Positions 153-57,500 of a DNA stretch of 64,000 nt are shown here, in pieces. The DNA lies in contig OX459095.1 of the NCBI GenBank assembly GCA_949775045.1, forward strand, positions 34,136,564 through 34,200,563, read 5' to 3'. A model generated the notes under the pieces. The model was not told the origin of the DNA. It saw nothing but the letters and a program-made list of their open reading frames with translations, and ran no database searches. Origin of the DNA: Metridium senile. Its lineage: Eukaryota > Cnidaria > Anthozoa > Actiniaria > Metridiidae. Position numbers and translations under genes: made by a program. How positions within the stretch are numbered: position 1 is the first letter of the stretch; each line of letters starts with the position of its first letter.

Positions 153-452
153 TATATACACCCATTTCAAAAATCGTTGTCGCAATCAAAACTACAGTCT
201 ACACTCTGAAGCCTGCTAAGGATGTCGGTAATATCAACATAAATTAAGATTTATTACACGTTTTTAAGAAATATTTGTTTCATCATCTTCAACTGCAACA
301 ACTTGTTATGGTAATATATAACACAAACACGTACAACCAAAATATACTGTGAATAAATTAATAACAAGAGAAATGCCGACATACTTTGCAGGCTTCAGAG
401 TGTGGACTGTAGCTTTGATTGAGACAACGATTTTTGAAATATGGTGTATACA
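153..452. repeat. Foldback element with TA-CACC cap
   Basis: The left end TATACACCCATTTCAAAAA and the right end TTTTTGAAATATGGTGTATA are inverted. The arms continue inward (ACACTCTGAAGCCTGC versus GCAGGCTTCAGAGTGT). This is a short non-autonomous DNA element in the 3' flank of CWH43. Confidence 0.75.
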
Positions 453-599
453 ACACAAGAAATAGCAATAATCTGGATTGTGAACAAATCAGCCCTGTAC
501 CCAATTGCTCAAAGCCTGATATTTTAATTATTTTATTTAAAAATGCTAATCCTAGACTACTAGTGCTTATCGAGCTTTGAACCTTGATGTGCAAAATAT

Positions 600-51543: not shown

Positions 51544-54500
51544 ATGGCGGACTCAATAGAGGTAAAATGATAATCACAATTATAAGTGCCTTTTTATGCT
51601 TTAATGGCTATGATATAACCTGTTTATGAATATAGGACGAAGATAGTTCGATTCCAGGAGAGATTAAGCTACCAAGTCAAGTATTTGATGTTGCTTTTCA
51701 CCCAGAAAGGAATGTGATTGCAGTCGGACAGATCGATGGACAAGTTACCATGTGAGTCGATAATTTTGAGAAAACAAATCGATATAGTCAATCGATAATC
51801 ATCCAATATGATCGATAGATAGATTTCAATCAATCAATCAATATGAATGTGATTGCAGTCGGACAGATCGATGGACAAGTGACCATGTGAGTCGATAGTT
51901 ATCGGAAAACAAATCGATATAGTCAATCGATAATCATCCACTATCATCGATAGCTAGATCTCAATTAATAGTAAATAGATATTGGCTGTGATAGCTTTAG
52001 ACTAGTTTTGCAGCTGTACAGATCAACTTTGACCTGGGGGCAGTAGGGGTAGGGAGAATTTGGACACAAGATGAACTTGGCTAAACTAAAGCTGCTTGTC
52101 CCAGTAATGCCCCAGAGAGAGTCTTTTAGTTTATTGACATGAAGGATTTAGAATCTGCTGTAAATAAATGGTATTTTCTTGGTATAATTAATTCCTCTTA
52201 TAGATGCACTTGAGAAAATATAAAGGACTTATATTATAAGCTAGAGTCACACTCAGCTCTGCCTCGTGAAATCTGTTCTTTCTATTCTCTTTCTATTTTC
52301 TCTCATGCAACTTGTTCTGTGTAATGGTAAGTATCACATGAGTGGACCCGGGGGGGGGGGGGGGGGGTGACTCCCTTGAAAACTTGATAGGGGTGCTCGA
52401 CAAACCTTTTAGGGTCGAAAATTAGACCCTGGCGTACCTTTTAGGGTCTCGAACTGGCACCATACCTTTTAGGGTCAGTTTTCGAACTTAAGATTATACA
52501 TATTGAAACAGTGTCATATAAAAATAATATTTATTAACTTCAACAATACATCAACATTGTTTCTCTAAAGTGTGTATTTATCAATTTTAAATTAAAAAAA
52601 AAAGTTAAATGTGGTTGTACCTTTTAGGGTCTGAAATCAGTGCCTGAGTTAATTTATTTACCTTTTAGGGTCATTTTCAAAACCGTTTGTCGAGCACCCC
52701 TATCAAGTTTTCAAGGGAGTCCCCCCCCCCCCCCCCCCCTGGGGAGTGGACAGTGCTTCATTGTATTCAGTCTCTGCTTAGACTACATAACAGTTCCTAC
52801 TTTTAAGTGAAAACTCTGAAGAAACAAGTTGAAGTTTGATCGAGTAAAATTTTGGACACAAGATAATTAGGAGAGTAGTAATGTATGAGCGGAGAGTGAG
52901 GTGAGATACACGAAAACTACTGTTTGGCATTTCTTCCCTCTCATACGTCACTTCTCTCCTCATCTCTCATGGCCATGGCCTAAACTTTACTCAATCAAAC
53001 CTCAACCCATTTCCTTGTACATGTAGCTTTCATTTAAAAGTAGGGACTGCTTTGCAGTCTACTCGCTGCTGTGGTCAAGGTTCAAGTCCCAGTTTCATGT
53101 GTTGTTGAGGGTTTTTCTCCTGGCCATCCAGGTCTCGATCCTCTCTCCATAAAAGTCAACAATTTATTGAGCAGAGCCATGTGCTACAACATGTAATGTA
53201 GGGGTACGTACGTAGTAAATTAAGTGTTAATGTGAGTCTCCTCAGTTAACAGGACACTTGTGTCTGGTTGATTCATTTCATTATTTATATTTATAGTAAA
53301 ATATTTATATCTTATTAGACAGTTAGATGTGTAATATGGCTAGATATTTTACCAGTGAAACACTGTAGTTTGAATGCGTAAAATATCCAGCCATATTACA
53401 CATCAAACTGTTAATAAGTTTTTTATTATCCAACCATCAAAAAAATAGGTATTTGTTCTCGTTTAAAATAGACTACTCAAAGACGAGAAAAAATATCGCT
53501 TTTACTCAAACTATTCAGTCCTACTCCTGGGATACTTTTACTCATCTATGACTTGTTGGATAATATATGATATGTTTTTCTACAGACATTCCTTTTCTAC
53601 CAGTGAACCAAATAAGTTGTTGATGGAACTAACACACCATAAGAAGGCTTGTAGAGCTGTTTCTTTTACCTTAGATGGCAATTGTAAGTTTATAGAATTA
53701 AACGACTTATTGATGTATTGAATAGTCCTTTTCACAGGTCTCATAGATCAACCTCAGACTCAGTAACGACACTAATTGAATAATATTAATAATAATAATA
53801 ATAATAATAATAATAATAATAATAATAATAATAATAATAATAATAATAATAATAATAATAATAATAATAATAATAATAATAGTGACTTAAGATCTAGTCT
53901 TAAAAGAATGTATCCTGGTTATAAGATCACTCAGGTCAACATTGTGTTTGACTTCTTATCAGGATATCACAAAAACTTGTTAAATAATCTCTCTAGCGTA
54001 GGACTAACAGAAGGACTAACTATTGTAAGAAAGTGCCAGAAATGGGTTATCTCTCAAAACTGTGAGATTGTTAAATGTTTATACAATTATTAGTTATAAT
54101 CATGTACATCTTTGTAAGTTTAGTCATACAGATATTTGCTTAGGCTACCTATGCCCGCAATATTTGTTTATAGTATGTAAAAACATAGTCTGAAGTTTAA
54201 ATAAATACAAATAATAATAATAGTGATTTAATAAGAAAACTAGCGAAAAGAAATTACAATGTTTCGTTGTCATCACGTAAATGAGAACGCAAAGAGAGAA
54301 ATATTTATAGTGGTGGACAATGAAAAATAATACAATAAGTTAATAAACAGTTTCGCTTGAATGGAGTCCGACTGGACATTCAAGTGTGGCTTAAATTATA
54401 ATTTATTTCTCTCTTTGCTCCATCATTTACTTGATAACGTTGTCGCGATGACAACGAAACGTTGTAATTTCTTTTCGCTAGTTTTCTTATTAAAGTGTAT

Positions 54501-57500
54501 AAGCAAAGTTCTTCTGATTAGAGTAATAATAATAATAATAATAACTTTATTTATTTATTTATATAGCGCTATTTTTAACTGGTAATTGCTAAAAAGGAAC
54601 AATGAATAAATAAATTTATTCATTTACATGGTAATTGCCAATAAACATGGCAATTATAATTTTATGAAATGGAACCTGCAAACATTAAACTTAATCTGAA
54701 AAAAAAAATAGTTTTACTTATTGTTTTGAAAAGTCCTTTTCACAGTTCTTGTTGATCAACCTCAGCCGTGATAGTGTGTAATATATTCTTTATAATTGGA
54801 CTACAGCCTATTGTACTGCTATATGAAACCATTACAGCTATATCAAAAAGGTTGACAAAGGTTTTGTTGCATGTTGTATACCACCAAGCCTGAAATGCAC
54901 TATGGATGATATGAATTCAAGCAGCAAATATAAAGGTTACAACAATATAACATTTTTCCAAACTTTTGTCTGCGAGGTTTTGCAGCCTATTTTATTGTGC
55001 TGATATCATTTACATATGAATATATGACGTATTTCAAGCTTGGTAAGCAGCATATGCAACAAAACCCTTACCAACCTTTCTTGAAATAGCTGTATATGTT
55101 TTTGGTGGATGCTTTAATGCATGTCTGCAAACATTAAAAGAAACTCTGCGTCCTCAAATAGTTTTGTATTCATCCAGTTGACGAATTGCTCACATGTGAA
55201 ATTGTAAGACAGTTGTCTGTCAAAGACAGAAGTTTTCAATACAGTTATAATTCGCTTATTTATTTATCTTCAACTTGTCCAATCATTTCAGATCTGCTGT
55301 CAGCTTCTAAGGACAAGTCTTTGCAAGCTGTCGATATGAACACTGGTGCTTTGGCGCTTACAAGGAAAAAAGCTCATGAGTATGCTCCAAAAACATGTGT
55401 ATAATTATTATAAATGTCTACTGGTCTCATAATACTTTAATAAATACTGCAATTTGCAGAAATTCTAACCCCATCAATTATATATCAGATGCATTATGAT
55501 TAATGCTTAATTCCGCCTCTGAGTGCTTTCTCAATGTCTATACAATTCATATCTATTACAAATATGGCATGTTATATATTCAAATAGTAGATAGACAGAC
55601 AGAGATAGTCAGGTTAGCAGATAGACACAGACTAAATTGCAAAACTGTTCCTACTTTAATGTGAAAACTCGGAAAAAATGAGTTGAAGTTTGATTTTTTT
55701 TTTTTTTTTTGAGTTTTCATGAAAAAAAGTAGGGACTGTTCTACAGACAAACAAACAAATAGACCAAGAGATAGATAGATCCAAGGAAAAGCAAAGCAAT
55801 AATGTAGCTGGGCCTTTGCACTGAAGTGAGGTGAACGTTGATCTTGCAATGATAGAGACCTTTTAACACCTTGCTGGACAATTATTCACGCATCTCTATC
55901 ATTGCAAGCTCAGCAATCGTCTTGCTTCTATGCAAAGGCCCGGCAGCCTTACAAGATGGCACAGGGAACTGTGAAGGAGAGTATTAGTCAGATATCTCAA
56001 CAGCATATATAAGAAATATAAGACTTTATGCCAACAACTGACCTGATAGTAATGTGGTTAACTATTATTGTTCAATCTATAGTTCTGCAATCAATTGTTT
56101 GATAGTATATAAGACTTTATGCCAACAACTGACCTGATAGTAATGTGGTTAACTATTATTGTTCAATCTATAGTTCTGCAATCAATTGTTTGATAGTATA
56201 TAAGACTTTATGCCAACAACTGACCTGATAGTAATGTGGTTAACTATTATTGTTCAATCTATAGTTCTGCAATCAATTGTTTGAAAGTGATATCTGAGCA
56301 TTTAGTTGCAACAGGAGATGATGATGGTGGAGTAAAAGTGAGTATAGTACTTTATTAATAGTATTCCTATCCCCCTACCCCTAAACACAGCAACCAGTAT
56401 ACAGCATATATCATACAGATTTATGTTGTTTCTATGATGCTTGTGACATACATTTGATAACATGGGGGGACATGGGGGATTGCAATTTTTTGGCTGTTGA
56501 TGATTTTTTTGCGGTGTTGCAGTGAAAAAATTCCTATGTTGCTGTGATGTAAATGCCTTCAGTGTGTGGTGTGCTTTTCCAAAGCTGCAGTGTCCAGTGA
56601 ATTGTAAAGCTGTAGTGTTCGTAGTGTTTGGTGAAAGACACTGTGATGCGGAGTGGTCAAAAATGTTTTTGCAGTGTTGAGAACTCCTCACCCCATATTT
56701 AGAATGAGAAACGAATGACACATGACATTTGGAATAGTTCAAATGTATTTTCAGCTGGACGACTTTTGTGAGATTAACTGTTTCAAAGTGAAATTCTAAT
56801 TTTTGTTAGTCTATTTAATTTTTCATTTTATTGTCTACGAAGACAACTATTAACTAACTATTAGAATTCACACCTGATTTGCTAAGGCGCGTGCTTTATG
56901 AGAGCAAACAACACGCATATTTGCATGTTGATCAAATATGTCAACTTGTATTTTATAAAAGAAATAGAAAACTTTGGTTTTTGTGTCGTATGCAGTTATA
57001 AAGCACTTTGGGATTGTCAGAACACTAGTGTTGAGAAGCACTCTGCTTCGCGTCTTGCTTCTCTTAAACTGCACATAACAGTTTTCTATTTCTTCAACAG
57101 TGCACAAAACTAGACGAATACAGGGCTGAAGTCCCAATTGAAATTCAATCAAAGCAAAATGTTAAATTCAATCAAAGCAAAATGTTTTAAATACCATTTT
57201 TGTTGGTGTTATTGTAGATTTGGGACAGAAGGTCAGGACTTTGTTCAATGGAATTCAAAGAAAATGAAGACTTTATATCTGATATGACGTGTAACCAAGA
57301 CAGAAAGTATTTATTAGCAACAAGGTAGATACATGGAGTTCACATGACATGTCTGGTAATGACTTGACTTGACGTGACTTGACTTGATGTAAACAGTATC
57401 GTGACGTTATGTGTCGTTACTTGCCTGGACCTGACATGACTTATCAAGATTCAAGATTCAAGATTTTTTAATTTTGTCTCAGAATACTACATTTACATAT

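What the first reader, a model, noticed from the sequence alone, without database searches (positions are those of the whole stretch)
153..55098. Foldback elements share one terminal cap but have unrelated arms
At least ten elements (153, 3631, 4837, 5284, 13702, 19259, 23436, 26801, 42606, 54830) begin TA-CACCTATTTC or TA-CAGCTATTTC, followed by an A run and GTTG or GTTGTC, and end with the inverse. Inside the ~20-25 bp cap the arms differ completely between most elements, yet within one element the two arms match for 50-100 bp. This is unlike ordinary MITEs, whose inner sequences are copies of one another. It suggests a mobile family in which only the cap is fixed and any sequence can be captured and made palindromic, for example by hairpin or strand-switch repair. 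The TA at the ends suggests Tc1/mariner-like target use. The caps and arms are seen directly; the mechanism is inference.
Basis: partly seen in the sequence, partly recalled or inferred. Interest (0 to 1): 0.75.

Follow-up and report, generated by a model that had tools for sequence, protein, structure and literature searches.

The report
Small foldback transposons with matched arms
This stretch of an animal genome, probably from a relative of sea anemones, holds about a dozen small hairpin-shaped remnants of jumping DNA that share their tips and, in most cases, a second inner block, so they look like diverged relatives of an ordinary mobile-DNA group rather than tips pasted onto random DNA.

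Summary
The ten elements and their cap are real: TACASCTATTTC with at most 1 mismatch occurs 19 times against 0.96 expected, and 27 caps form 11 convergent pairs within 1 kb, more than any of 10,000 strand shuffles. An eleventh element lies at 48685-49480. 'Unrelated arms' does not hold. Elements 153 and 3631 are full-length copies, loop included (83.7% over 301 columns). 19259 and 42606 share arms. Six of the ten carry a second block, near CCAAGACCMAAATGCAYTATGGGT, 41-62 nt inside the cap; so do the eleventh element, a solo arm and a tandem array. Only 23436 and 26801 have arms without a clear relative here. One real oddity remains: the spacer between cap and block matches between an element's own arms (mean 0.81) but mostly not between elements (0.35); own pairing is the best of 720. 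This fits a Foldback-like MITE group whose arms are made alike again from time to time, as published for Galileo. No transposase was found; copy number, TA duplication and superfamily could not be settled, because the genome search did not complete (12 requests). Ordinary in kind; a new member.

The parts
155..450 (.). Element 153; no inner block; full-length copy of 3631 in the other orientation
3631..3921 (.). Element 3631; copy of element 153, loop included
   Evidence: 83.7% over 301 columns
4837..5148 (.). Element 4837; cap and inner block in both arms
5284..5547 (.). Element 5284; cap and inner block in both arms
13702..13989 (.). Element 13702; cap and inner block in both arms; arms match the solo arm at 4704-4758
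19258..19929 (.). Element 19259; cap and inner block in both arms; arms related to 42606; holds other repeats inside
23436..23710 (.). Element 23436; cap only, arms without a clear relative in the window
26802..26992 (.). Element 26801; cap only, arms without a clear relative in the window
42605..42811 (.). Element 42606; cap and inner block in both arms (weaker in the right arm); arms related to 19259
48685..49480 (.). Eleventh element, not in the finding; caps at both ends, inner block in the right arm; two other foldbacks lie inside it (48736-48965, 48992-49288)
54831..55096 (.). Element 54830; cap at both ends, inner block detected in the left arm only
4683..4758 (-). Solo arm with a cap; related to the arms of 13702; block not detected by the profile
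32449..32525 (-). Solo arm related to 19259, with inner block and a degenerate cap
59373..59514 (-). Head-to-tail tandem array (period 69, 2.1 copies) of cap plus inner block

Best explanation
These are decayed non-autonomous DNA transposons (MITEs) of one Foldback-like group in an animal genome, probably a cnidarian. The cap, and in most members a second block 41-62 nt inside it, are shared across elements, most likely because a transposase supplied in trans binds them (inferred). The DNA between and beyond these blocks has diverged between lineages (shown). The two arms of one element stay alike because from time to time one arm is copied over the other, for example by template switching between the inverted arms during repair of a break (inferred). 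A founder with matched arms can then multiply as an ordinary MITE family, as 153 and 3631 show.
For: Cap far above chance and in convergent pairs. Shared inner block in 14 of 29 arms tested, p at most 0.002; still found with the 19259 elements left out of the training set (10 of 11 arms, p at most 0.009). 153 and 3631 are full-length copies. Identity within against between elements: cap 0.88 and 0.77, spacer 0.81 and 0.35, block 0.79 and 0.64, after the block 0.56 and 0.37. Own pairing of spacers is the best of 720 permutations; shuffled spacers give 0.28. Published precedent for changing, extended and recruited TIRs with more conserved ends in Galileo (passages).
Against: Block absent by the profile in 15 of 29 arms, among them both arms of 153, 3631, 23436 and 26801. 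In 153/3631 own-arm and cross comparisons are about equal (53/62 to 61/65), so no arm conversion is seen after those two copies split. The block was first noticed by eye, so its test is not fully blind. Spacers of 19259 and 42606 are also alike between elements (0.77-0.82). No transposase was found, but only 17 of the 27 frames of 110 aa or more were scanned. Binding and arm copying are inferred, not shown.
Confidence: 0.72

Rival explanations
1. Cap-only capture: only the terminal cap is fixed, and unrelated host DNA is captured between caps and made palindromic by hairpin or strand-switch repair.
For: 23436 and 26801 have long matched arms, no inner block and no clear relative in the window. 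Spacers differ between elements but match within them.
Against: 6 of 10 share a second block; 153 and 3631 are copies of each other. No captured source sequence was seen: matches of the 23436 and 26801 inner parts elsewhere in the window are short and weak.
Confidence: 0.12
2. Several independent MITE families with separate histories that use the same or related transposases, so that only the bound ends are alike; the arms were palindromic in each founder and nothing converts them afterwards.
For: The 153/3631 pair behaves in this way: star-like divergence of four arms. Some MITEs are described as alike only at the TIRs or their very ends (background passage of PMC3573991).
Against: The block shared by 6 of 10 lies deep inside the arms, at +41 to +62, with an unlike spacer before it; this fits common descent better, though convergent binding sites cannot be excluded.
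Confidence: 0.15
3. Chance inverted repeats in AT-rich DNA.
For: GC is 0.315-0.375 in 4-kb steps and the cap holds an A run.
Against: Cap 19 against 0.96 expected; 11 convergent pairs against at most 9 in 10,000 strand shuffles.
Confidence: 0.01

Closest known systems
Galileo (Foldback-like, P superfamily, Drosophila)
   Same: Ends more conserved than the rest, variable and extended TIRs, internal sequence and secondary insertions that become part of both TIRs, solo TIRs and tandem repeats (passages of PMC4168063 and PMC3573991)
   Different: Galileo TIRs are hundreds of bases long and its target duplication is 7 bp; here the elements are about 190-310 bp (672 and 796 with other repeats inside), ends are at TA, and no constant 7-8 bp duplication is seen
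CMITE (coral MITEs, piggyBac-like)
   Same: Cnidarian MITEs with related families, a conserved inner stretch and tandem arrays (parts 1 and 2 of 4 of PMC2872659)
   Different: CMITEs have TTAA duplications, are about 100 bp, and their inner region is more conserved than the TIRs; here the caps at TA are the most alike part
Tc1/mariner-type (Stowaway-like) MITEs
   Same: Short elements with inverted ends next to TA; the CMITE paper's introduction lists Stowaway-like MITEs under Tc1/mariner; the TA target is recalled knowledge
   Different: The cap was not matched to any named Tc1/mariner end here; no transposase; TA duplication untested. Recalled, not tested: ISL2EU-type elements also use two-base targets

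Membership tests
MITE (general) | Short non-coding element with terminal inverted repeats | tested here: met
   Eleven elements, caps inverted at both ends; those without other repeats inside are about 190-310 bp
MITE (general) | Copies of one another at other sites | tested here: inconclusive
Foldback-like elements | Long matched inverted arms around a short middle | tested here: met
   Arms of 50-134 nt in 8 of the ten elements, weaker in 42606 and 54830
Tc1/mariner | TA target duplication | tested here: inconclusive
   24 of 27 ends begin with exact TACA; no empty site to compare
Tc1/mariner | DDE/D transposase with the same ends | tested here: inconclusive
   No transposase hit in 17 of the 27 frames of 110 aa or more; genome search not answered
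Galileo / P superfamily | Target duplication of 7-8 bp | tested here: not met
   No flank repeat of 7 or more in 10 of 11 elements; 26801 gives 7 in a TA run
piggyBac (CMITE) | TTAA target duplication | tested here: not met
   The 27 end flanks printed show no regular TTAA

The most novel reading that the evidence does not exclude
A mobile family in which only the cap is fixed and arbitrary DNA between two caps is repeatedly captured and converted into a palindrome, so that new foldback families arise from single-copy host sequence; 23436 and 26801 would be fresh cases.
Probability: 0.08. Interest if true: 0.7.

Novelty: new member of a known kind. Interest (0 to 1): 0.3.

Why it matters
The group gives a compact example of two conserved blocks with a spacer that changes between elements but stays matched within each element, which is a usable signature of arm conversion in short foldback elements. 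With genome-wide data the rate and tract length of such conversion could be measured. It needs no new type of transposition.

Tried and rejected
Inner block as a palindromic protein site: only 2 of 11 copies had p below 0.05 in a shuffle test, so this was dropped.

Relatives elsewhere: the cap pattern had no match in viral contigs or prokaryote genome contigs, the block pattern none in viral contigs, and element 4837 none among plasmids. These collections are not expected to hold animal DNA, and each answer says that records very near the window's own genome may be left out.

Literature: ten searches were answered. The search for four cap strings gave one spider taxonomy paper, seen as a listing only. 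No listing was seen to describe this cap; most subscription journals are not held.

Organism: a first guess of a sponge was dropped.

Transposase in the window: 17 distinct frames of the 27 listed at 110 aa or more were scanned with Pfam. Besides two PGAP2IP hits, three matches lay below the curated cut-offs and none was a transposase. Shorter frames were not scanned.

Full report
Observation. The cap TACASCTATTTC with at most one mismatch occurs 19 times; 100 dinucleotide shuffles gave a mean of 0.96 and a maximum of 4. A profile built from the 20 reported ends finds those ends again, by construction, and 7 more at E up to 0.12: 48685+, 49480-, 4749-, 3269-, 59401-, 59470- and 38474+. With these 27 ends, 11 convergent pairs lie within 1 kb; shuffling strands 10,000 times gave a mean of 4.00 and a maximum of 9, random placing a mean of 2.24 and a maximum of 8. 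The pair 48685/49480 is an eleventh element with two other foldbacks inside.

Arms. Inner arms (beyond 26 nt) were aligned between all ten elements (45 pairs, best of four arm combinations), with 180 shuffled pairs as control (maximum 22). Elements 153 and 3631 score 118, 19259 and 42606 score 67. Weaker scores of 23-33 join 4837, 5284, 13702, 19259, 42606 and 54830, and the pair 19259/23436 scores 23. By BLAST, 153 and 3631 are full-length inverted copies, loop included (83.7% over 301 columns), and arms of 13702 match a solo arm at 4704-4758.

Second block. The weak links come from a block near CCAAGACCMAAATGCAYTATGGGT. A profile from 4837, 13702 and 19259, leaving out the tested element itself, finds it in 14 of 29 arms at p up to 0.002 (1000 dinucleotide shuffles each): both arms of 4837, 5284, 13702, 19259 and 42606, the left arm of 54830, the right arm of 48685, the solo arm at 32525, and the array end at 59470. 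The start lies at +41 to +62 from the cap in the paired elements and at +35 in the solo arm. The 15 misses are both arms of 153, 3631, 23436 and 26801, the left arm of 48685, the right arm of 54830, and the ends 38474, 4749, 3269, 59401 and 11026. Since 42606, 48685 and 32525 are arm relatives of 19259, the test was repeated with a profile from 4837 and 13702 alone: 10 of 11 arms again pass (p 0.001 to 0.009), and 54830R again fails. The block was first noticed by eye, so neither test is fully blind. A consensus search with up to 3 mismatches gives 6 places and none in 100 shuffles, but that consensus was drawn from these copies.

Within against between. For six elements with a block position in both arms, mean identity within and between elements is 0.88 and 0.77 for the cap, 0.81 and 0.35 for the spacer, 0.79 and 0.64 for the block, and 0.56 and 0.37 after it (6 within and 72 between pairs, the latter with 48685R). 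For 54830R the block position was set by alignment, although the profile did not detect it. Own left-right pairing of spacers is the best of 720 permutations (0.81; permutation mean 0.43; shuffled spacers 0.28), with 19259/42606 also alike between elements (0.77-0.82). If arms had only drifted since a common ancestor, the two arms of one element should differ as much as arms of different elements. So either one arm was copied over the other, or new palindromes were founded from one arm; which of these happened is inference. In 153/3631, own and cross comparisons of the four arms are about equal (53/62 to 61/65), so these two look like copies of a founder that already had matched arms.

Flanks. 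Of 27 ends, 24 begin with exact TACA, and the two bases outside are TA in 14 of the 24. This fits insertion at TA by an element that begins CA. A constant 7-8 bp duplication is not seen: 10 of 11 elements have no flank repeat of 7 or more, and 26801 gives 7 in a TA run. The TA duplication itself is untested.

Source. GC is 0.315-0.375. A spliced PGAP2-interacting protein gene lies on the minus strand at about 9.4-12.3 kb (Pfam hits in two of its pieces). Its best match is a Nematostella vectensis protein at 638 bits, the next being a Branchiostoma protein at 356; identity is 62% over 238 and 58% over 240 columns. The window is probably from a cnidarian other than Nematostella; this rests on one gene.

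Known kinds. Galileo in Drosophila shows conserved ends, changing TIRs, recruitment of internal sequence and of secondary insertions into both TIRs, and solo TIRs (passages of PMC4168063 and PMC3573991). The second paper's background also says that some MITEs seem to have acquired unrelated sequence and keep homology only at the TIRs or their very ends. Coral CMITEs have a conserved inner region and tandem arrays, but TTAA flanks (parts 1 and 2 of 4 of PMC2872659). The present group works like Galileo as far as its arms go, is not a member of that family by its flanks, and is filed as a new member of the Foldback-like MITE kind with an open superfamily.

Limits. Genome-wide copy number, a transposase with this cap and empty sites were out of reach: twelve identical genome requests did not complete. 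The verdict rests on one 64-kb window.

Noticed in passing
window 59373-59514: Cap plus inner block repeated head to tail (period 69, 2.1 copies), so single arms of the group can form a small tandem array.
   Followed up: partly
window 31767-31966, 48736-48965, 19678-19736, 4570-4640, 55927-55985: Another repeat family with arms like ATAGTCYCCTTCACAGTTCCC, partly as foldbacks, two copies lying inside cap elements 19259 and 48685.
   Followed up: no
window 38777-38939 and 50782-50996: Two foldbacks whose arms share CCCATTTAAATCTGTACTT-like sequence, a further separate family.
   Followed up: no
window 32953-33955: Tandem repeat read as open frames with units like ITCIEAPSPSHYHHHFYTSSLL; probably not a gene.
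   Followed up: no
window 9460-12285, minus strand: Exons of a PGAP2-interacting protein gene, closest in the search to Nematostella vectensis.
   Followed up: partly
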